From: Endozoicomonas sp. G2_2
Lineage (GTDB): Bacteria; Pseudomonadota; Gammaproteobacteria; Nevskiales; Salinisphaeraceae
NCBI RefSeq assembly: GCF_017744135.1
Contig: NZ_JAGHQU010000017.1
Coordinates: 1-64,000, forward strand
Reading direction: 5' to 3'
DNA: 64,000 nt
A model generated the notes under the pieces. The model was not told the origin of the DNA and did no database searches. It worked only from the letters and a program-made list of their open reading frames with translations. Below are positions 50,246 to 63,622 of the stretch, in pieces. Every line of letters starts with the position of its first letter. Position 1 is the first letter of the stretch. Made by a program: the position numbers and the translations under genes.

Positions 50246-50563
50246 TCAAAACCAAGCTACCGGCATATGCGCTGGGTGCACTGAAGAACGCGCGCTACCT
50301 TGCCGCGCAGCCTTTTTTAGGATATCGCGCTCCTCTTCGGTGCGGCGCAGCCGTGCGCGCAGCTTGAGGATCTCGCTTTTCGCCTCGACCAGCTCGTTGG
50401 CCTGCTGCTCGGTGTTATCCGGCTTAACCGCCTTCACCCATTTGTACAGGCTGTGAGCCGACACGCCGAGGCGCTCGGCGACATCAGCTACCGGATAACC
50501 GCGATCCAGTACTTGCCGAACCGCTTCATCCTTGAATTCCGGGGTATATCTTTGATTGCTCAT
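50246..50563 (-). pseudogene. IS3-family transposase OrfA, element truncated
   Basis: The product is about 105 residues, beginning MSNQRYTPEFKDEAVRQVL, with the helix-turn-helix VADVAERLGVSAHSLYKWVKAV and the leucine-zipper-like segment ILKLRARLRRTEEERDILKKAA. The last 20 or so residues after KKAA are not IS-like and come from flanking DNA. Without OrfB it cannot transpose. Confidence 0.85.
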
Positions 50564-50624
50564 TACACTTCCTCCTATGCTCAAATCATAGGCCAGAAGT
50601 GTCTAATGGACCCGGGCAAGTCCA
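50311..50624 (-). mobile_element. Remnant of an IS3-family insertion sequence
   Basis: The presumed left terminal repeat begins at 50624 on the minus strand (TGGACTTGCCCGGGTCCATT), followed by orfA. IS3 similarity ends just after an A6G slippery run (CTAAAAAAGG, 50311-50320), where orfA would normally shift into orfB. The rest of the element, including the DDE transposase and the right end, is missing. Confidence 0.75.
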
Positions 50625-50790: not shown

Positions 50791-51846
50791 TCACGCTATA
50801 GCCTCACATGCGAATTCCCGCAGGATCGCAGGAGTGCAAATGCTCTCTTGATCAATTCCGCGCTCTCCACATCGCACGGCGAGTGGATGTTCATCGTGAA
50901 GATTTTGACCTTGCTTGCCGGTTGCCTTAGCTAGCGGGTGCCCACCCGTAGCCTCAAGCAGATCCAACATCGGCTGGTACAGCGCTGAAAGCCGAAGATG
51001 GGGCAAACGATGCTGTAGCCTTTGAAAAATACGAAAGCCTTCGGGGTCGAGGTCGCCCCAGAAGGTCAGGCGTTCGCATGCAAACGCCGCTGCCGGTGTA
51101 GGCGGCTGCCCGGCGCGCACCAGGCGAGCGTAGTCCCGGGCCTCCACCGCACCTGCCAGTCCCCGGCCGTAGTCCTCGCCAGCCATCGACAGGCCGTAAC
51201 CGTAAGTCACCATCCAGGCCAGTGGCAGATCAGCGGTCGCGGCAACTGCCGCTTCGAAAGCCACCGGGTTCTCCACCAGCACCACGGTTTTAGGCTTCGG
51301 GGGGCCGGCCATCATGAGATGCCAGGTACGCCCGGTGGACAGATGACCGGCCAGCCCGAAGCGGCGCAGAGCGAGGCTGGGTAGTGTGTCCAGGAGCTTC
51401 GAGGATCCGAGTAGGTAGCGGGCGCTGATTACGAAGCGGGGTACGCCCTCCAGACTGTCCTGCTCAGCCCGCAACCGCTGGAGCCCGTTAATCAACCGGC
51501 CCATGTCCTGCGGCGACCAATCGGCCAGCTTAGAGTACAACGGCGCCAGCGCTTCCTGATCTATGTCCGATAGGCTCTCGTCGGCCATAGCGGCCTGCCA
51601 TGCCCTTTCGTCGGCCGTCACAGTTTTCGCCTGGAGGCGAAGCTCGATGAGCGTCAGGGGCTGGCCTTGAGAGTTAAACGAGCCGTGCAGCTCATTAAGC
51701 TCTTTAAGCTCCAACAGGCCAGCCCGCACCTCAGGCTCGGTCAACTTACTGACCCGAGCCACTCGGGCCACCAGCGGGGTTGGCCGCATGGTCCCCGATG
51801 CCGGTTGCAGCTTACGCAGCGCCTCGCGGACCTTCGTGGTGCTCAA
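50791..51846 (-). CDS. jetD: Wadjet system nuclease subunit JetD (TOPRIM-like)
   Basis: A 351-residue protein. Members of the JetD family cut circular DNA extruded by JetABC. The TOPRIM-type catalytic residues are visible: Glu192 in VVLVENPVAF, and the DxD pair Asp265 and Asp267 in TFWGDLDPEGFRIF. The N-terminal half (residues about 1-170) matches the arm domain that contacts the SMC complex. The start is TTG at 51846, overlapping the jetC stop (TTGA), with GGGAG seven bases upstream. It is the last gene of the jetA-B-C-D unit. Confidence 0.9.
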   Translation of the reverse strand: MSTTKVREALRKLQPASGTMRPTPLVARVARVSKLTEPEVRAGLLELKELNELHGSFNSQGQPLTLIELRLQAKTVTADERAWQAAMADESLSDIDQEALAPLYSKLADWSPQDMGRLINGLQRLRAEQDSLEGVPRFVISARYLLGSSKLLDTLPSLALRRFGLAGHLSTGRTWHLMMAGPPKPKTVVLVENPVAFEAAVAATADLPLAWMVTYGYGLSMAGEDYGRGLAGAVEARDYARLVRAGQPPTPAAAFACERLTFWGDLDPEGFRIFQRLQHRLPHLRLSALYQPMLDLLEATGGHPLAKATGKQGQNLHDEHPLAVRCGERGIDQESICTPAILREFACEAIA

Positions 51847-54800
51847 TGTACGTCTCCCGGCCCGGGCGTCTGTTCCAGCCGCAGCTTGCCGATGACCACG
51901 CCTTCGTGGAGCTGCTGTTCCTCGATGTTGGTCCAGCCGCCCTCGGTGCTGGAGTGGGAAGTGCCGAACAGAAATACCGGAAAGTAGTCAAAATTGTTGA
52001 CGTATTCCGGCGGGTGAATGAAGCCGATCACCTGAAGGCGGCCGCGAGTGTTCTGGATCTCAGCCATGCCGGCGTCGATCAGCTTCTTCTTCGACAGGTC
52101 CGAGAACAGGCCGTCGATCAGCATGATGGTTTGCTGATTTTCGCGCGCCTTCCGCCGAGCTGCGGCGGTCGGCAGCCGGCGAGAATCCCTCTCGGTAGAG
52201 AACTCGGTCAAGCGAATGAGCCAGGCCAGCGTCATGGCAGTCTTCTGTCCGGTGCTCAGATGCTGGGTCAGCTCGTGAAACTTGCCATCGCCCCGGATCT
52301 CCGGTGATGAGAACCGGATGCTGGGATCCTTGAACAGCCGCCGGTAGCACATCTCGCGGATACGAGCGCGAATCTGATCCTCGGCCCGCTGATCCTCGCT
52401 GGAGTGATGTCGCGCCTGGTTCATGTCGTCCTGCAACACCGACACCTGCCCGTGAATAGTGGTCCGAATGTCACGCACCAACTCCTGAGCCGACTCCCGA
52501 TCAAGGGCCGTGGCCTTGATCTCGAACCGCAAAGCATCCGGGTCCTGCGTATCCTTGGCCACGCGCTGGAGGATTCTGAGGTGTTGGCCCGCGCTGGTGA
52601 TCAGGTTGCCCATGCGATTGATCGCCTCGTCCATGCTGACCTGGGCCGCGGTGCTCACCGCCTCCAGCTTCTCCTTCGCTGCCTCACGCAGCCCGAGGTA
52701 GCTCTCAGCCAACCGGTGAACACGATCGGCTTGGTCGAGCCCTTCGACAGGCCGCAAATGCTCGCGCTCCGAGGGTCCCAGATCACTATCTTCGGCTCTC
52801 AGGCTATTGATCAGTTCCAGCATGCGGCCAACCTGGCGGTTACGGTCGGCACGGTGGTCGCGCAGGCTGCGTCGCTTGTGCTCCAGGTCGAGCTCTCTCA
52901 GCTTCACGGCCAGTTCGCCGGCGGTCTCCTCGATGTCGTGGAGGTCCATGACGCGCAGCGCGTGTCGCAGGTTGCCGGACGCGATGCAGATCTCGTGCTC
53001 GGCGAGCTGGCCCCCGTCGATCGCCCCGGGCTTGAGCTCCGCGCTGAACGAGCGGGTCAGGCGGTCCTGTTGCAGCAGTTCGGCCAGCGCGTGGTCCACG
53101 GCGTCCCGCGCCTTCACGTAGCGCGGGCGATCCCCGCGCGCCTGCTCGAGTTGCTGTTGTGCCTCCCGGAGAAGGCGGGTTTTCTGTTCTCGCGCCCTCT
53201 GAGCATCCGCCCTTTCTTGTTCCGGCGTCTGGCCATCGGCCCGTCGTTGCCTAATGTCTACGTACTTGGCGGCGCGCTTGAGGGTCTGCTGGAAACTTAC
53301 CCGGTTCTGCGCCCGATCCAACGTTGCCTCGATTCGCTGGCCCTGTTCTTCGCGGGTGACCTGCCAGGCCGGGCCCTTCAGCTTCACGAACGTCTGCGCC
53401 TGATCCACGCGCCGGCGTTGCTCAGGCGGGTAGGCCTGGCCCCGCGCCTCATCAGCCTCCAACTGGGACGTCTCGGCCATGTTTAGGCGGCCCTCGGCGG
53501 TTTCTACGCGCTCCCTTGCACGCCGGGTGGCATTTGCGGCCCGCTCCACCGCCAACTTTGCATCAACCACCGCTTGATTCCCGCCGGCTTGCTCGAAGGC
53601 CGCGGCGCCACGGATCATTGCCAAGCTGTTGCCCGTGAGCCGTTCGTTGATCGCGATTGCTGTCGCCTCGTTGTCTCCGTGCTCGGTACGCGCTTCGGGC
53701 AGACGCGTCTCCACGTTGGCTGTCAGCGCGTCGCGCGCTTCGCGGGCATTACTCACGGCCTTCCCCTCGGGCGCCAGCCGTCGACGTTCCGCTTCGAGCC
53801 GCTCGATGGCTTGATCGGCGGCGGCAATCTGCGCTCTCAGGTCCTCTTTGCGCTCTTCGATCTTGGCTGGATCCAGCAGACACTCCACATCCAGCGTGCG
53901 TAGGCCGGCCAGCAGCCCGGTGGCCCGGTTATCCTGAACATCGAGCCGACCCTCGCGGGCGTATTGCACCAACTCACGGCCCACGAAACAGGGCAAGCGC
54001 ATCTCTGCGGCTTCCAGCGAGGCAGCCGCGCGCTCCGCACCCGCCGCATCCGAGCCCACCGGCGCGAACAGCAGCGCTGAGAAATGGGTCAGCACTTCAG
54101 CGCGACGCGGCCCCGGTAGGGAGAGGCCATCGATGAACTCATGCAGCGGTTCGGCCGGAATATCGGTCTCCGACAGATGCTGCAAGGCCGCCCGGTAACG
54201 GGCATCGGGGGCTGCCAGCTCATCGGCCTCCAGCGCCTCCAGTTGAGCTTTTAACTCCTTACCCTCAGCCTTTTTCTCATGCCGCTCAATGCCGGCCTGT
54301 TCACGCCTAGCATCCGCTTGCTGCAACCAGGCAGCCGGGTCGGCGTCCTGCCCCTGCTGAGTCCGGAAAGCCAGCAGAGCGTGCTCCAGGTCCTGGAGGC
54401 GTTCGATTTCGCGCTTGAGGTCGGCGCGCTTGTCGGAACAGGCTTGCAGTGTTTTTCGCTGATCTTCCTCGAATCCGGAAGCCCGGGTCTCAGGGAAGGC
54501 TTCGGCAAATCGTTGATGCACCGCCTGCTGCTCGACCAGGTGCTCGTGCCGAGCCTCGGCTTCATCCTGCTCCCGTTTGGTCGCGTCACGCGCTTGTTTG
54601 GTGGTGTCCAACCCGTCTCGCGCTTCTTGGGTCTGGCGCCTGGCCGTTCGGTATCGCTCCTCGGCCGAATCATGCTCGGCCTGAAGCTGTTGATGCACGA
54701 GCGCGGGGTCAGCCTCAGACCCAAACTCAGCAACGAACTGGGCCCAATCCGGCAGCAGGGGCTCGAGGCGTGCCGAGCGCGCGGTGAAGGCGTTCATTTC

Positions 54801-56405
54801 TTTCTGGGCTTCTTGACGCTCCTCGTCCACGAGATACACCAACTTATCGGCGTGCTCGGCTTCCTCGGGCTCAAAGAACGGGCTCGAACGCACATCCAGG
54901 TAGGCCTGACGGCCTTCCTCGAATTCCGTGTGCTCATTATCAAGTTCGCTGATGCGCTCACTCAGCCTGGTTATTTCATCGCCAAGGCGCCGAACCTGAT
55001 CGTCGGCGGCGTTCATCGTCTCCTCAATCTCGTCGAGCTCCACACGCACGGGGTTAGTGGAAGTAGCCCGCGTCATCCACTCGTAGGCGATTTCTAGGGC
55101 TTCGCTCAGGTCATTACGCACGTGCGGGCGCAGATTCGGCACCAGCGGCAGGAGCCGCTGAGCGTCGTCGATCGAGTAGTAGACGCTGCGGTGGCCCTTG
55201 TCATCTGCGCTGACGGGCCTGAGATCGCAAGTTGGCTCAATGACTTGCGTAATTCGTGTGCCTTTCAACTGGTTGCGACTGGCGATCTCATTGAGTCGCC
55301 TGACCTTTAGCCCAGATGCCGCAGCCAACCCCACGTCTCTCACCAGCACCCCTTTCCCCGCCCCAATCACGGTGTGACGGGCAAGCTGGCCAGTCAGATC
55401 ATCGTCAGGAAAGCTCACCGTGGGCAGCCCTGGCAGCGGGTCGTTGCTGATCTGCTCACGCAGTGCGGCCAGTGTCAGGGCGATCGACTGGTACTGGCCG
55501 TCGTAGCGCTTCTGTGCCGCCTCGGCCTCACCGGCGGCGGCATCCGCGGCATGGGTGCTTTCCTGCACCCTCTTGCAGCGGTCGAATTCTTTTTTCGCCG
55601 TCTCAATATCGCGCTCGTTTTGAATCGAGCGATACAGGCTCTTAAAGATCGTGTCCTCAAGGTAGTGCTCGTCCTTTTCGGCCACGTCCCCCATGATTCC
55701 CGACATGATCTCCGGGGCCAGCACGTCGTAAAAGAAAGTCTGGTCGAAACGCTCAGCATCGCGCTTCTTGAGGTCGAAGAACTGGGCGGCCTGATCACCG
55801 CTGCCGGCCTTCTGGTATTCAGCCAGTTTCTTGGCATTGCCGCTGGCGATAAATAGATCCATCTGCCGGCGCCAGTCCGACTCAGTCACACCCCAGCTGG
55901 CGCGATCGCCCCCCCGGACGCTTTTCTGGAACACCCCGTTGGGCAGTAGGCCCGTTACACCGTCGAGCGTGCCGATGGTCGGTGCGTCCTCGAAGGTGCC
56001 CCGATAGAAGTAGTAATTACGGTCTCGGCCTCGGCCCCGGAACCCGCAAAGTCCAAACACCCACGTCTCTGCAGTAAAGGTCGACTGGCCGGTCGGGCGC
56101 GCTTGCAGCGCGTCTTCGGTCAGATCAATTAGCTCAATTCGGACATGCCCCCAATGGCCGCTTTTATCGGTATGCGGAGGCAGGCAGGCATATACGCGGC
56201 TCATGAGGGCCCGGTCCCGCGAGATCAGCCCTACGATGGCATTGGCCAACGAAGTTTTGCCGCCGCCGTTATCCAGGCGAAGCGCGGTGGACAGGCCGTA
56301 GAACGGCAGGATGGTGCCGCAGAAACGGGGCATCCACGGCAACTTGGGATCGTCGCCGCGGCCGTTAACGTAGTTGGTCGCCTCGAAGCGGTTAATTCCG
56401 AACAT
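51843..56405 (-). CDS. jetC: Wadjet system SMC-type ATPase JetC
   Basis: A MukB-sized SMC-like ATPase of 1520 residues, expected to extrude DNA loops with JetA and JetB. The N-terminal P-loop is RLDNGGGKTSL (residues 44-53). Long alternating charged, coiled-coil stretches (roughly residues 480-800 and 860-1330) surround a central hinge-like region. The C-terminal ABC signature LSTGQKT starts near residue 1383, and Walker B is TIMLIDGLFSDLS (Asp1431), with Gly where SMC proteins have the catalytic Glu. The ATG at 56405 follows the jetB TAG after one base. Long open frames on the other strand are shadows. Confidence 0.9.
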   Translation of the reverse strand: MFGINRFEATNYVNGRGDDPKLPWMPRFCGTILPFYGLSTALRLDNGGGKTSLANAIVGLISRDRALMSRVYACLPPHTDKSGHWGHVRIELIDLTEDALQARPTGQSTFTAETWVFGLCGFRGRGRDRNYYFYRGTFEDAPTIGTLDGVTGLLPNGVFQKSVRGGDRASWGVTESDWRRQMDLFIASGNAKKLAEYQKAGSGDQAAQFFDLKKRDAERFDQTFFYDVLAPEIMSGIMGDVAEKDEHYLEDTIFKSLYRSIQNERDIETAKKEFDRCKRVQESTHAADAAAGEAEAAQKRYDGQYQSIALTLAALREQISNDPLPGLPTVSFPDDDLTGQLARHTVIGAGKGVLVRDVGLAAASGLKVRRLNEIASRNQLKGTRITQVIEPTCDLRPVSADDKGHRSVYYSIDDAQRLLPLVPNLRPHVRNDLSEALEIAYEWMTRATSTNPVRVELDEIEETMNAADDQVRRLGDEITRLSERISELDNEHTEFEEGRQAYLDVRSSPFFEPEEAEHADKLVYLVDEERQEAQKEMNAFTARSARLEPLLPDWAQFVAEFGSEADPALVHQQLQAEHDSAEERYRTARRQTQEARDGLDTTKQARDATKREQDEAEARHEHLVEQQAVHQRFAEAFPETRASGFEEDQRKTLQACSDKRADLKREIERLQDLEHALLAFRTQQGQDADPAAWLQQADARREQAGIERHEKKAEGKELKAQLEALEADELAAPDARYRAALQHLSETDIPAEPLHEFIDGLSLPGPRRAEVLTHFSALLFAPVGSDAAGAERAAASLEAAEMRLPCFVGRELVQYAREGRLDVQDNRATGLLAGLRTLDVECLLDPAKIEERKEDLRAQIAAADQAIERLEAERRRLAPEGKAVSNAREARDALTANVETRLPEARTEHGDNEATAIAINERLTGNSLAMIRGAAAFEQAGGNQAVVDAKLAVERAANATRRARERVETAEGRLNMAETSQLEADEARGQAYPPEQRRRVDQAQTFVKLKGPAWQVTREEQGQRIEATLDRAQNRVSFQQTLKRAAKYVDIRQRRADGQTPEQERADAQRAREQKTRLLREAQQQLEQARGDRPRYVKARDAVDHALAELLQQDRLTRSFSAELKPGAIDGGQLAEHEICIASGNLRHALRVMDLHDIEETAGELAVKLRELDLEHKRRSLRDHRADRNRQVGRMLELINSLRAEDSDLGPSEREHLRPVEGLDQADRVHRLAESYLGLREAAKEKLEAVSTAAQVSMDEAINRMGNLITSAGQHLRILQRVAKDTQDPDALRFEIKATALDRESAQELVRDIRTTIHGQVSVLQDDMNQARHHSSEDQRAEDQIRARIREMCYRRLFKDPSIRFSSPEIRGDGKFHELTQHLSTGQKTAMTLAWLIRLTEFSTERDSRRLPTAAARRKARENQQTIMLIDGLFSDLSKKKLIDAGMAEIQNTRGRLQVIGFIHPPEYVNNFDYFPVFLFGTSHSSTEGGWTNIEEQQLHEGVVIGKLRLEQTPGPGDVH

Positions 56406-56406
56406 G

Positions 56407-57198
56407 CTAATCGTCCTCGTCTTCGCCGTTGCCGCGACGGGTGGCCAGATTGGTGATCTGCGCCAGGGCGTCCTCGCCGGGATCGAGCAGAGCCAGACCA
56501 CGGTCGTAGTTGCGTTGGATTTCGACGGCGCCCAGCAGTGTCTGTTGGTACACCGGTTCTTCTGCCGTGCTGGGCACAATCGTCAGCAAGCCGGCCTCGA
56601 CCATGACCTCGCAGAAGGCAGCCACGCGCCGCTTGAAGTCCATTCCGTCGGCACTGGTTAGGATGGTGAGTACCTGCGTGGCATCGTCGGTCTCGCCAGC
56701 AGAGCCACGGAGCCCATCGCAGTGCTCGCGCAGGGCAGTCTCCAGGCGCGAAGCGGGAAATCTGGCGTCTTGATAGCGGCTGGCAGCAGTCATTCCGCGG
56801 TTGATGTAGGTATAAGTCACCGCCAAGTACATCAGCCAAGTGTGCAGAAACCAGACGCCGGCGCTGGCGCGCGTGTCCCCCTGCTTGATCTGCATGCGTT
56901 CGAGTACACGATCACGCGAGAAATACTGGGGTGGTTGGGCGTCGGCCTGGCGGGCCAGCATCCACAGCTGACTATCCACCTCGATGCCCGGCATCTCGCC
57001 GCCTTCGTAGCGCAGCAACTCCAACCCCTGACCGGCAAGCAGCTCCCGAAACTGCTGCATCACATCGGTGTCCTCGGCTGCGGCCAGCAGGCTAGCGATG
57101 TGATCCTCACCGGTGTGGCGGCGCCGACGGGGCTTGGTCTCCACATAGCGGTGGCGCAGCAAATAAGCGTGCACCTCTCCAACCTCAGACCACTGCAT
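56407..57198 (-). CDS. jetB: Wadjet system subunit JetB (MukE-like)
   Basis: A 263-residue soluble protein in the position of the MukE/KITE-like subunit that bridges the kleisin and SMC heads. It has winged-helix-like helical segments (MQWSEVGEVHAYLLRHRYVE; FKRRVAAFCEVMVEAGLLTIVP) and an acidic tail (NGEDEDD). Sequence similarity to known JetB proteins is hard to see by eye, so the call rests on the gene order. The start at 57198 lies inside the end of jetA (14-base overlap), and its stop is one base from the jetC ATG. Confidence 0.82.
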   Translation of the reverse strand: MQWSEVGEVHAYLLRHRYVETKPRRRRHTGEDHIASLLAAAEDTDVMQQFRELLAGQGLELLRYEGGEMPGIEVDSQLWMLARQADAQPPQYFSRDRVLERMQIKQGDTRASAGVWFLHTWLMYLAVTYTYINRGMTAASRYQDARFPASRLETALREHCDGLRGSAGETDDATQVLTILTSADGMDFKRRVAAFCEVMVEAGLLTIVPSTAEEPVYQQTLLGAVEIQRNYDRGLALLDPGEDALAQITNLATRRGNGEDEDD

Positions 57199-58594
57199 AG
57201 TTGTCTCCGTCAGGCGGTGGGCCAGCGGCGGCGTGATCCTCACCGCGTAGCCGTAACTCCAAGTCATCCCCGGTTAGCGCACGGTGGCCATCGATCGGGA
57301 TTCGCATCGCATCAGCCACCAGGCGCATTTCAATGGCCTCGTCCTCGACCAGCCGCCGCGGTGCGGTGAAAACGCCCACGAGCTGGTCCACCATCGATTG
57401 ACCGTGTGCGGACAGCCACCCCTGTGTGCGCGCCTCGGACAGCCGAATCGGCCGCTCGAACAGGAGCTGGCGAATGTGTTCTCGATGAGCCTCCAGAAAC
57501 AGGTCCATCGGCGTTATCCGGTCATCGCCTTCCTCGGGTCGCGCCACCGGCGCGACCGCTACCTCGGTTTCGGTGGAAATCGCCGGCAGGATGCCGTCAA
57601 AGTCGGCGAGCGCCGCATGGGGCCAACAGACCGCCAGAGGGCCGGACTGTGCATGGCAAGCGGCAACCAAGGCTTCGTCGGGAGGACACAGCGCCAGGTA
57701 CGCCGCAAGCCCCGGCAGGTCACGCACTCCGACCGGCTTTTCCCCAGCGCTGGTGATGTGATGGATAAAGTCGGCATACATGCGGCCGAGCCGCTCCAGC
57801 AGCCGCAGCGCGTTGTAGAGTTCGAGGCTGAATTGCTCGGCATCGGCGCCGCCGTGCTGCCCGGCATGACGATCCATCGCTTCGGTGATCTCTGACGTTC
57901 CCAGCAGCTCTTGGGCATCGACAACTGCCGCGTTGGTCTCGCTCAGCGCGTTGTTGTAGGCCTCGGACTGGCTACGGAACATCTCGACGCGATCGCCCCG
58001 GCCAGGCTGCTCACGTGTGTTACGGATGTCCTCTGCGAGCTCAGCGATTTTCTGCAATACCGTCTTGAGCGCATCCTGGGCCTCGACGAAAAGCCCGTCC
58101 CGCAGCGCGCCGGCAATTTCCAACGCCCGAAAGCGAGTCAACAGGAAGCTGCTGGCCGATGAGGCCAAACGGATGGCCTGGCGGCCGGTTCGGGTCAAGC
58201 GAGCCCGATCTGCACTTTCATAGGCCGGGCGTTCCAGCAGCGCAGCGGCTTCTCTCGTCGCGTCGATCTGCTCGGGCGCTTCGGGCACCCGCATCCATGA
58301 CTGGCTCGGCGTAGCGAGGAGGATGACGACGTGCTCGAGATCCTCGTTCGAAAGCTCCGGGTAGTGCCCTTGGATTTCTTCGAAGCAGGGTCCGAGCGCC
58401 ACGTAGTCATGGCTAAATATGGTTTCCTGGGAGTGGAGATAGCCGAGAAGACGGGCACCAACGTCCAACCAAATACCTTCACCCCAGCCTGGCCGGTCCT
58501 CCGTAACACGGTAGGTGCCTACGCCCGGATGGCGTGCTAAGTCATGTAGGTCTACTAAACGCAACACTGACCGGAGAAGAGGTCGCAAGTCCAC
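57185..58594 (-). CDS. jetA: Wadjet system kleisin subunit JetA (MukF-like)
   Basis: A 469-residue, mostly helical protein in the kleisin position of the operon. A winged-helix-like N-terminus and a coiled-coil middle (residues about 165-260, e.g. ALKTVLQKIAELAEDIRNTREQ) fit MukF/JetA; the C-terminal 90 residues form another winged-helix-like block. The start is GTG at 58594, with only a weak ribosome-binding site (AAAGAA). It leads the jetABCD unit, and all four genes are coupled by overlap or one-base spacing. Confidence 0.82.
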   Translation of the reverse strand: MDLRPLLRSVLRLVDLHDLARHPGVGTYRVTEDRPGWGEGIWLDVGARLLGYLHSQETIFSHDYVALGPCFEEIQGHYPELSNEDLEHVVILLATPSQSWMRVPEAPEQIDATREAAALLERPAYESADRARLTRTGRQAIRLASSASSFLLTRFRALEIAGALRDGLFVEAQDALKTVLQKIAELAEDIRNTREQPGRGDRVEMFRSQSEAYNNALSETNAAVVDAQELLGTSEITEAMDRHAGQHGGADAEQFSLELYNALRLLERLGRMYADFIHHITSAGEKPVGVRDLPGLAAYLALCPPDEALVAACHAQSGPLAVCWPHAALADFDGILPAISTETEVAVAPVARPEEGDDRITPMDLFLEAHREHIRQLLFERPIRLSEARTQGWLSAHGQSMVDQLVGVFTAPRRLVEDEAIEMRLVADAMRIPIDGHRALTGDDLELRLRGEDHAAAGPPPDGDNYAVV

Positions 58595-59676: not shown

Positions 59677-59802
59677 TCATGCGGGCGCTTTGGCCTGCTC
59701 GATCATGCGATCGATCCGCTTGGCCGTGACAACAGTGCGATGGTTAGCTTGCCAGAGCCATCGCACCCATACGGATATGCGCTTACGCGATCTCAATCGC
59801 AA
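59677..59802 (-). CDS. Possible 41-residue basic protein
   Basis: A short frame overlapping the end of the MobI-like gene by 10 bases. It encodes a very basic, Trp-rich peptide containing KRISVWVRWLWQANHRT and ending RIDRMIEQAKAPA. The start (TTG at 59802, or GTG at 59766) is uncertain and no clear ribosome-binding site is seen. The protein-like composition and the overlap are the only support. Confidence 0.3.
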   Translation of the reverse strand: MRLRSRKRISVWVRWLWQANHRTVVTAKRIDRMIEQAKAPA

Positions 59803-60308
59803 ATAGGGGATAGCGCATCGTCGCTTGCTGGCAACGCGCGCTCGGCAGCGGCTGCCTTTCGCGTCTCAATAATGTACCGACGTACCTTACCGAGCATTTG
59901 GCTCTGTCGACGAATCGCCTCGAACTCATTTTCGAATAGCATCGCCAAGTCGATTTCCCACTCTTTGGCTCGAACACGGCGAAACGCAGCGGCAGAGTAA
60001 CGCATGGACTTGCCCCGCGGCAGGTATTGCAAGGCGGGCTGTCGCCTAGTGTGGTTGCCAGAACGGTAGCGCGGTTGCCAATACTTCGCGCGAAACCATT
60101 CGATCTGTACTGAGCCGTTGCGTAGGCGCACTCTCACGCCGATAAAGCCCCATTCGTGTTTCGGCCGTAGTTTATGGTTCCGGTGATGTGCCTCCCAGAA
60201 CGCTTCGGCCGCCGCGAATGCGCGCTCGTAGAGAAACTGAGCGCCTGCGAGCGCCCCTTCGTAGGCTTGGTCGAGCCCCTGTCCTAGCTTGTCTTCTGTG
60301 TCGTTCAC
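59793..60308 (-). CDS. MobI-like conjugative mobilization protein (tentative)
   Basis: A soluble protein of 171 residues from a GTG at 60308 that has GAGG at good spacing; an earlier GTG at 60389 is less likely. Segments such as WGFIGVRVRLRNGSVQIEWFRAKYW, a basic middle (YLPRGKSMRYSAAAFRRV) and the helix AKEWEIDLAMLFENEFEAIRRQSQMLGKV resemble MobI of SXT/IncA-C elements as I remember it. MobI genes lie next to the oriT, and here the gene is followed upstream by 1 kb of repeat-rich non-coding DNA. The family call is from memory, not a search. Confidence 0.45.
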   Translation of the reverse strand: MNDTEDKLGQGLDQAYEGALAGAQFLYERAFAAAEAFWEAHHRNHKLRPKHEWGFIGVRVRLRNGSVQIEWFRAKYWQPRYRSGNHTRRQPALQYLPRGKSMRYSAAAFRRVRAKEWEIDLAMLFENEFEAIRRQSQMLGKVRRYIIETRKAAAAERALPASDDALSPICD

Positions 60309-60401
60309 TATATCGCCTCGATCGTGTAGCGGTGCCCTGCCCACTTCACTATCAAGTGGGGCGTTGGGCCAGATATCCTTCCTGCGCACGCGCGCGCGGA
60401 A

Positions 60402-63377: not shown

Positions 63378-63510
63378 TTAGATGGTGGGCTCTTTTCCGG
63401 CCAGCCAATCCGAGGAGCCGATCGCGGACGCCTTCGCCGTATAGCGCACGGTGGCGTTACGGGTATCGATGGTCGCCTGAACGATCGCCAGCAGACAGCC
63501 GGCACCAGCG
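63378..63510 (-). pseudogene. C-terminal fragment of an unidentified gene
   Basis: A frame reading LLAIVQATIDTRNATVRYT and ending WLAGKEPTI with a TAA at 63378-63380. The region looks coding in composition but has no start; it is joined at about 63500 to the jetC-like fragment in a different frame. I do not recognise the protein. Confidence 0.35.
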
Positions 63511-63622
63511 GCAGCAGCCGCTGAGCATCGTCGATCGAGTAGTAGACGCTGCGGTGGCCTTTTTCATCTGCGCTGACGGGCCTGAGATCGCAGGTTGGCT
63601 CAATGACTTGCGTGATTCGCGT
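63500..63622 (-). repeat. 123-bp fragment of a second jetC
   Basis: This stretch aligns without gaps to jetC positions 55137-55259 (JetC residues about 383-423), in the same orientation, with seven mismatches counted by eye (about 94% identity). The encoded peptide is TRITQVIEPTCDLRPVSAD and onward to YSIDDAQRLLPLVP. The sequence on both sides is unrelated or heavily diverged (VDRLSE replaces VRRLNE, with a deletion). It is not part of an intact gene. Confidence 0.88.

What the first reader, a model, noticed from the sequence alone, without database searches (positions are those of the whole stretch)
50791..58594. Complete Wadjet (jetABCD) anti-plasmid locus with translationally coupled genes
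A JetD TOPRIM nuclease with Glu192 and DxD, a 1520-residue SMC ATPase and two upstream kleisin/KITE-position genes occur in one tight unit. Junctions are a 14-base overlap, a one-base gap and a TTGA overlap with a rare TTG start. JetC has the size of MukB, larger than many described JetC proteins as I recall them, so the subtype is worth placing.
Basis: partly seen in the sequence, partly recalled or inferred. Interest (0 to 1): 0.7.

Follow-up and report, generated by a model that had tools for sequence, protein, structure and literature searches.

The report
Divergent Wadjet-like SMC plasmid-defence operon
Four overlapping bacterial genes look like a distant, unclassified version of the Wadjet machine that reels in and cuts plasmids, and its relatives in salt-loving bacteria have repeatedly lost the cutting enzyme while keeping the motor.

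Summary
The operon is Wadjet-like but fits no subtype that I could test. JetD has E192, D265 and D267; JetA's model most resembles MukF and JetB's resembles solved JetB. The window's JetA, JetB and JetC have only sub-threshold hits in PADLOC, Pfam and NCBIfam, and by profile comparison JetC lies further from type I, type II and MukB than type I lies from those two. MukB-like size is not special: PADLOC JetC2/JetC3 models run to 1,355-1,473 positions.

Two features go beyond the finding. (1) The Walker B catalytic glutamate is glycine in 63 of 63 family rows, but glutamate in 24 of 24 type I/II JetCs examined. (2) The family occurs in 69 of 201 Halomonadaceae genomes; there 40 of 58 tree rows have jetABC without jetD, with at least 11 changes forced by supported branches. 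No JetD lies elsewhere in 38 of 39 such genomes, and jetC stays under similar purifying selection.

Best reading: a loop-extruding plasmid cutter whose JetABC probably has a second, nuclease-independent role. A new variant of a known kind; activity is inferred, not shown.

The parts
57185..58594 (-). jetA-like gene, GTG start, 469 aa: MukF-type kleisin
   Evidence: ORF; AF2 model of modest quality (mean pLDDT 66.8, pTM 0.38); Foldseek best hit a MukBEF chain of 9gm7 (E 5.2e-4, the only hit under 0.001); VIA-align 1t98_A MukF Z 12.4, rmsd 13.3, 208 aligned
56407..57198 (-). jetB-like gene, ATG start, 263 aa: KITE-type subunit
   Evidence: ORF; AF2 model (mean pLDDT 76.3, pTM 0.71); Foldseek best hit 8dk1_E, JetABC (E 0.013, none under 0.001); VIA-align 8dk1_F and 8as8_C Z 9.7, rmsd 4.6, 176 and 177 aligned
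51843..56405 (-). jetC-like gene, ATG start, 1,520 aa: SMC ATPase with long coiled-coil-like arms
   Evidence: ORF; alignments A1 and A5; motifs in 63 family rows
50791..51846 (-). jetD-like gene, TTG start, 351 aa: TOPRIM nuclease
   Evidence: PADLOC JetD1 4.8e-16, Pfam JetD_C 1e-7, family profile against PDB: MksG 8b7f 0.0034 and JetD 8q72 0.09
56253..56270 (-). JetC Walker A core NGGGKT, residues 46-51
   Evidence: N46, G47, G49, K50, T51 identical in the 62 rows with letters there (1 gap); position 48 varies
52245..52259 (-). JetC ABC signature LSTGQ, residues 1383-1387
   Evidence: S1384, G1386, Q1387 identical in 63 of 63
52110..52124 (-). JetC Walker B MLIDG, residues 1428-1432: glycine in place of the catalytic glutamate
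   Evidence: D1431 and G1432 in 63 of 63; DE in 24 of 24 type I/II JetC ORFs examined
51271..51273 (-). JetD catalytic E192
   Evidence: 22 of 22
51046..51054 (-). JetD DxD, D265-L-D267
   Evidence: both D in 22 of 22
57185..57198 (-). 14-base jetA/jetB overlap
   Evidence: same overlap length in L019
51843..51846 (-). TTGA jetC/jetD overlap
63500..63622 (-). stray 123-base jetC fragment, 94% identical to 55137-55259
   Evidence: also in same-genus genome G007
59793..60389 (-). MobI-family gene upstream of the operon (mobile context)
   Evidence: Pfam PF19456, E 4.7e-24
50246..50584 (-). small transposase ORF downstream of the operon (context)
   Evidence: Pfam HTH_Tnp_1 PF01527, E 1.1e-20

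Best explanation
The operon encodes a Wadjet-like complex. JetC is the SMC motor, JetA the kleisin and JetB the KITE subunit; together they load on DNA and extrude loops. On a small closed circle they converge and activate the JetD TOPRIM dimer, which cuts the circle and clears incoming plasmids. Architecture and catalytic motifs are shown here by sequence and predicted structure; extrusion and cutting are inferred from type I Wadjet. The family is a branch outside the type I and II models, its motor lacks the usual Walker B glutamate, and in Halomonadaceae the nuclease is dispensable, so JetABC probably also has a nuclease-independent function there, most likely chromosome organisation like MksBEF. 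The window's copy lies with a mobilisation gene and was probably acquired recently.
For: JetD: PADLOC JetD1 and Pfam JetD_C, profile match to one type I JetD group at 98.8% probability, E192/D265/D267 in 22 of 22. JetA/JetB model matches to MukF and JetABC chains. JetC Walker A, signature, Walker B aspartate and H-loop histidine conserved in every row with letters there (62 or 63). Operon order conserved in relatives with 26-30% JetC identity. In relatives all four genes are under purifying selection. Acquisition: full-length JetC in 1 of 41 own/relative genomes; 7 kb including jetA and part of jetB 100% identical in same-genus G007 up to that contig's end; MobI next door.
Against: No activity was measured. 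Glycine at the catalytic-glutamate position in 63 of 63 may mean very slow or altered ATP hydrolysis. JetA, JetB and JetC have no model match, JetD none in NCBIfam and only 2.7% profile probability to the single type II JetD tried. The JetA model is weak (pTM 0.38), its Z of 12.4 lies within the range the tool warns about for helical bundles; JetB's best Foldseek E is 0.013. 40 of 58 Halomonadaceae tree rows lack JetD, so plasmid cutting cannot be the only function of the family.
Confidence: 0.7

Rival explanations
1. JetABC of this family is mainly a chromosome-organising SMC complex (MksBEF-like). JetD is an accessory nuclease that some lineages carry and others shed, and plasmid restriction is a side function of the copies that kept it.
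For: JetD absent beside jetC in 40 of 62 tree rows (all 40 among the 58 Halomonadaceae-type rows), 13 changes at least on the tree, 11 forced by starred branches, 22 losses if only loss is allowed. No JetD of this family elsewhere in 38 of 39 JetD-less genomes, 4 of 4 positive controls found. jetC dN/dS 0.066-0.143 in 11 hand-picked JetD-less pairs versus 0.077-0.124 in 6 JetD-bearing pairs. PMC10586767 (passages) says that P. [quoted passage not shown]
Against: All 53 genomes tested have ScpA, so no SMC vacancy exists. 132 of 201 Halomonadaceae genomes show no match, so it is dispensable. The four outgroup rows all have JetD. No chromosome data exist.
Confidence: 0.45
2. In JetD-less genomes another nuclease works in trans, so JetABC remains a defence device throughout.
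For: jetABC retained under purifying selection.
Against: By eye no one gene follows jetC in all JetD-less loci. No JetD of this family elsewhere in 38 of 39. JetDs of other subtypes in those genomes were not searched.
Confidence: 0.15
3. The window's operon is decayed or inactive.
For: TTG start for jetD; Walker B glutamate missing; stray jetC fragment nearby.
Against: All four frames are open; JetD catalytic residues intact; the glycine is family-wide, 63 of 63, hence not decay.
Confidence: 0.08

Closest known systems
Wadjet type I (JetABCD / MksBEFG; E. coli GF4-3, P. aeruginosa PA14, C. glutamicum)
   Same: Gene order A-B-C-D; TOPRIM JetD with E and DxD; JetB fold (8as8_C and 8dk1_F); nearest JetD model JetD1
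   Different: The window's JetA, JetB and JetC match no type I model; JetC is longer; Walker B is DG, not DE
Wadjet type II
   Same: Four-gene logic (recalled) and a longer JetC (1,377-1,380 aa ORFs here)
   Different: JetC profile match only 1.2% (two sequences) and JetD 2.7% (one sequence); type II Walker B is DE in both
Wadjet type III
   Same: JetC models of similar length (1,471-1,473 positions); weak JetD3 match (4.5e-6)
   Different: No type III model matches JetA, JetB or JetC of the window; no type III sequence was obtained, so its Walker B and profiles were not compared
MukBEF / MksBEF
   Same: JetA model closest to MukF; SMC of MukB-like length; JetD-less jetABC in many Halomonadaceae
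   Different: No Pfam MukB match over the cut-off in any of 53 genomes, 4 of them with sub-threshold hits; profile probability to E. coli MukB 20%; the window has JetD
Lamassu (LmuB)
   Same: SMC-like defence ATPase with a changed Walker B glutamate (generally Q in LmuB, per PMC10586767, passages); PADLOC LmuB hits in 6 of 16 family JetCs, best 1.7e-9
   Different: Glycine here; kleisin- and KITE-like partners; the LmuB hits shown lie in middle, arm-like stretches in most cases and also occur with type I JetC, so probably reflect coiled coil

Membership tests
Wadjet (general) | JetD-type TOPRIM nuclease with catalytic E and DxD | tested here: met
   By motif and profile; no structure model of JetD was made
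Wadjet (general) | MukF-type kleisin JetA | tested here: met
   Fold only, on a weak model: the first 8 rows are MukF or MukBEF/MukEF entries (best Z 12.4); Foldseek E 5.2e-4. A Wadjet-II JetABC chain, 9qe0_E, follows at Z 10.2, tied with unrelated CorA
Wadjet (general) | KITE subunit JetB | tested here: met
   Chains of solved JetABC rank first, Z 9.7; chain identity as JetB inferred from its length
Wadjet (general) | SMC ATPase with Walker A, signature and Walker B aspartate | tested here: met
Wadjet (type I and II, as seen here) | Walker B catalytic glutamate | tested here: not met
   Glycine in 63 of 63 against glutamate in 24 of 24 comparators
Wadjet (general) | Operon order jetA-jetB-jetC-jetD | tested here: met
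Wadjet type I | Match of JetA, JetB and JetC to type I models or profiles | tested here: not met
   Models. Profiles: (JetC against four type I groups, best 66%; JetA/JetB against three)
Wadjet type II | Match of JetA, JetB and JetC to type II models or profiles | tested here: not met
   Models. Profile for JetC only, two type II sequences
Wadjet type III | Match to type III models or profiles | tested here: inconclusive
   No model match of JetA/B/C in the window; relative L009 hits JetC3 at E 0.0054 over the Walker A stretch; no type III sequence obtained
Wadjet (general) | ATP-dependent cleavage of small circular DNA; lower plasmid uptake | not testable with these tools
   needs bench work
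MukBEF | Match to Pfam MukB (PF04310) | tested here: not met
   0 of 53 genomes over the cut-off, own genome no match
MksBEF (no nuclease) | No JetD/MksG gene | tested here: not met
   The window has jetD; 40 of 62 tree rows of the family lack it

The most novel reading that the evidence does not exclude
This is a further Wadjet lineage whose SMC motor works without the canonical Walker B glutamate. In Halomonadaceae it has turned many times independently from a plasmid-cutting machine into a nuclease-free, chromosome-acting SMC complex by clean loss of jetD: a natural replay of the proposed Wadjet-to-MksBEF/MukBEF transition, with a before-and-after pair inside one species (Salinicola salarius L058 and L066).
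Probability: 0.4. Interest if true: 0.8.

Novelty: new variant of a known kind. Interest (0 to 1): 0.6.

Why it matters
PADLOC-DB 2.0.0, Pfam and NCBIfam models miss three of the window's four proteins, so such loci are likely to go uncounted. A review (PMC10586767, passages read) calls the origin of Wadjet and its relation to other SMC complexes unresolved and suggests that MksBEF arose by loss of JetD. This family offers a set of independent jetD changes, some between closely similar jetABC copies, on which that idea can be tested. The family-wide glycine asks how an SMC motor can cycle without the residue whose replacement drastically slows other ABC ATPases (same review).

Tried and rejected
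Type III placement: PDLC00583 in 303 class genomes gave matches in 18, all partial (best 2.4e-7) and none a clear JetC3. Five look-ups for Bacillus plasmid accessions found no record. So type III stays open.

Profile alignment of JetA and JetB to type I or Muk subunits gave nothing; only the fold comparison did. Comparator alignments were small (1-8 sequences), so these misses are weak evidence. JetC against the Protein Data Bank: nothing for the single sequence at E up to 1, chance matches for the profile; the same for JetA and JetB profiles. The first hhalign run used a wrong option and was repeated.

Columns conserved with JetD but variable without it gave scattered positions in A, B and C that I could not tell from the effect of relatedness.

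JetD as a freely moving cassette: the JetD and JetC trees agree broadly. One exchange is likely: L024 JetD groups with Billgrantia (100/100) while its JetC groups with L060 (100).

Viral contigs (single-protein query, six patterns): no relative. Phage records: none. Plasmids: matches on two P. aeruginosa records only; JetA none.

Rows and regions dropped: L046 (jetC in three ORFs) left out of the tree; L017, L018, L008 dropped as duplicates of L032, L062, L019; L004 and L010 hold fragments. L076 kept although its JetC N-terminus lies in other ORFs. L044/L045 (one assembly) and L068/L072 have identical JetC and were both counted. Of 26 regions fetched around JetD_C hits (45 hits), 22 gave a JetC-sized ORF and were used; L137-L140 did not.
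Full report
WHAT IS THERE. The minus strand holds jetA (58594-57185), jetB (57198-56407), jetC (56405-51843) and jetD (51846-50791), with a 14-base overlap, a one-base gap and a TTGA overlap.

IDENTITY OF THE PARTS. JetD matches PADLOC JetD1 PDLC00527 (4.8e-16) and Pfam JetD_C (1e-7, over its cut-off), no NCBIfam model. Its family profile reaches MksG (8b7f, 0.0034) and JetD (8q72, 0.09) through the WGDLD stretch. E192, D265 and D267 are identical in 22 of 22 family JetDs. In MksG, E236A and D279A drastically impair cutting (PMC10123090, passages); that these are the counterparts of E192 and the DxD is my inference. JetA and JetB were modelled from family alignments. JetB is best matched by chains of solved JetABC, 8dk1_F and 8as8_C, Z 9.7 over 176 and 177 residues, ahead of Nse1-Nse3-Nse4 at 8.7 and single winged helices at 8.3 and below; its best Foldseek E is 0.013. 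JetA is best matched by MukF: the first eight rows are MukF, MukEF or MukBEF entries, Z 12.4 to 11.1, then CorA and a Wadjet-II chain at 10.2 (Foldseek E 5.2e-4). The JetA model is weak (pLDDT 66.8, pTM 0.38), so this is support, not proof. JetC carries Walker A, signature, Walker B aspartate and an H-loop histidine.

NOT A SUBTYPE I COULD TEST. The window's JetA and JetB have no PADLOC hit at E up to 1; JetC has Csx1 0.017 and LmuB 0.038. Pfam gives DUF433 0.16 for JetA and DUF7667 0.0055 for JetC, both under the cut-off; NCBIfam one hit at 0.32. In PADLOC, of 16 family JetCs 6 hit LmuB (best 1.7e-9), one JetC3 (0.0054) and one PglZ (0.0093); of 22 JetAs one hits PDC-M07A (0.0047); of 21 JetBs none. 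Pfam on the 16 JetCs gives four single weak hits. As yardsticks I used 22 JetC ORFs beside Pfam JetD_C hits (26 regions fetched); the four representatives scanned match JetC1, PADLOC's type I label. Two type II loci were added. Five of the six pairs of type I groups were compared and find each other by profile at E 2e-12 to 7e-120. Type I groups reach 68-94% probability with type II and 86-90% with E. coli MukB. This family's JetC reaches 66%, 44%, 21% and 10% with the four type I groups (the 66% stretch lies, by position, in the second arm), 1.2% with type II and 20% with MukB; its N-terminal head alone reaches 81% with one type I group and 41% with MukB, its C-terminal head and hinge under 2%. 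An unrelated SMC-like control gives 0.4%. Only JetD links firmly to type I: 98.8%, 95%, 95% and 73%. Alignments were small, and type III could not be compared beyond its models.

AN ODD MOTOR. At the catalytic-glutamate position of Walker B the family has glycine in 63 of 63 rows (window included), and LFS-x-LS behind it is invariant. All 22 type I and both type II JetCs have DEAF. Lamassu LmuB generally has Gln there, and such substitutions slow ABC ATPases drastically (PMC10586767, passages). Either another base serves (E1401 is invariant in 63 of 63; a guess) or the cycle is slow. This is unexplained.

WHERE THE FAMILY LIVES. JetC relatives are rare in an even draw of the class (3 of 369 genomes, own included) and of the phylum (3 of 398, own included); only two first-look candidates per genome were scored there. 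A scan of 84,980 species genomes, limited to two short peptide patterns, gave 61 loci: 57 with Halomonadaceae genus names, two from one unplaced assembly that groups with Salinicola, one Candidatus Thiodiazotropha and one Cellvibrionales. In a family-wide search 69 of 201 Halomonadaceae genomes, in 13 of 24 genera, match.

THE NUCLEASE COMES AND GOES. Of the 61 loci, 61 hold JetB and 60 JetA beside JetC (truncated L045 lacks JetA). In the tree (61 loci without L046, plus the window and L009) JetD is present in 22 of 62 rows; all 40 without it are among the 58 Halomonadaceae-type rows. The JetC tree (quick method) needs at least 13 changes, 11 forced by starred branches; allowing only losses gives 22. 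Of 39 JetD-less genomes searched whole (L043 and L045 not searched), 38 have no JetD of this family and one (L078) has a 43-residue remnant beside jetC; 4 of 4 positive controls were found. In seven sister pairs homology stops between 25 bases before and 83 after the jetC stop. It resumes 80, 9 and 6 bases after jetD in L058/L066, L072/L074 and L020/L021; 6 bases before its end in L062/L053 (with other DNA in L053 in between); 433 and 1,192 bases after it in L070/L059 and L050/L052; L060/L078 share only an 81-base remnant inside jetD. By eye no one gene takes jetD's place in all loci. Purifying selection on jetC is alike without JetD (dN/dS 0.066-0.143, 11 hand-picked pairs) and with it (0.077-0.124, 6 pairs); jetA gives 0.069-0.163 and jetB 0.080-0.237 without JetD; jetD itself 0.197-0.249. 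Some JetD-less pairs may have diverged partly before the loss; the five Salinicola pairs inside the 13-row JetD-less group (its deepest fork is not well supported) are the cleanest. All 53 genomes tested have ScpA and none has MukB over the cut-off, so JetABC is an additional SMC.

THE WINDOW'S COPY. Full-length JetC is in 1 of 41 own/relative genomes. Backbone up to the tRNA-synt_1c gene, about 49.2 kb, is shared with several genomes of the genus. The stretch 56.9-63.9 kb, with jetA and part of jetB, is 100% identical in G007, whose contig ends there; G004 has only pieces of the right-hand part at 76-94% (capped list). MobI lies upstream and a transposase ORF downstream. This points to recent horizontal arrival on a mobile element.

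MECHANISM. Shown: gene content, order, motifs, folds of JetA/JetB as far as the models go, selection in relatives, absence of JetD in many. Inferred from type I work: loop extrusion, size sensing of circles, JetD activation. Most likely the window's complete operon restricts plasmids, while JetABC of the family also serves a nuclease-free role in Halomonadaceae.

LITERATURE. Searches for Wadjet with JetD and type IV (20 of 61 listed), MksB with MukBEF and Halomonas (0), Wadjet with subtype or Walker B terms (14 each), loss of JetD (6), Wadjet with Halomonadaceae genera (8 of 332 listed, none of the 8 holding the word Wadjet) and new Wadjet types (1) showed no description of this family (listings only). 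Preprints and most subscription papers are not held, so this is weak evidence of absence. PMC12647877 (passages) added nothing on Walker B.

Noticed in passing
window 63500-63622: A 123-base piece of jetC (94% identical, ungapped) lies apart from the operon beside a PIN-domain gene and a RES-like ORF (the latter by eye); the same piece and surroundings are in same-genus G007. It looks like a remnant of a second jetC.
   Followed up: partly
L004 8175-10942 (P. aeruginosa plasmid pPUV-6): A jetC tail and jetD of this family remain next to a Tn3-family transposase and mercury-resistance genes: a broken copy on a plasmid typed as conjugative.
   Followed up: partly
L008 12204-16965 (same locus as L019): An SbcC/YhaN-like ATPase and an Mre11-like nuclease ORF (named by eye, no family search) lie directly upstream of jetA on the same strand.
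   Followed up: no
L044 and L045: One Salinicola-like assembly (MFB021) carries jetC with identical protein sequence on two contigs: a duplication or an assembly artefact.
   Followed up: no
L058 and L066: Two Salinicola salarius strains differ by presence and absence of jetD behind closely similar jetC, an ideal experimental pair.
   Followed up: partly
L046: Salinicola tamaricis jetC is split over three ORFs: decay or sequencing error.
   Followed up: no
contig G000:C8 66.7-69.3 kb (L010 8726-11335): A large P-type ATPase-like ORF and other metal-resistance-like ORFs (by eye) follow to the right of the window, consistent with a cargo island.
   Followed up: no
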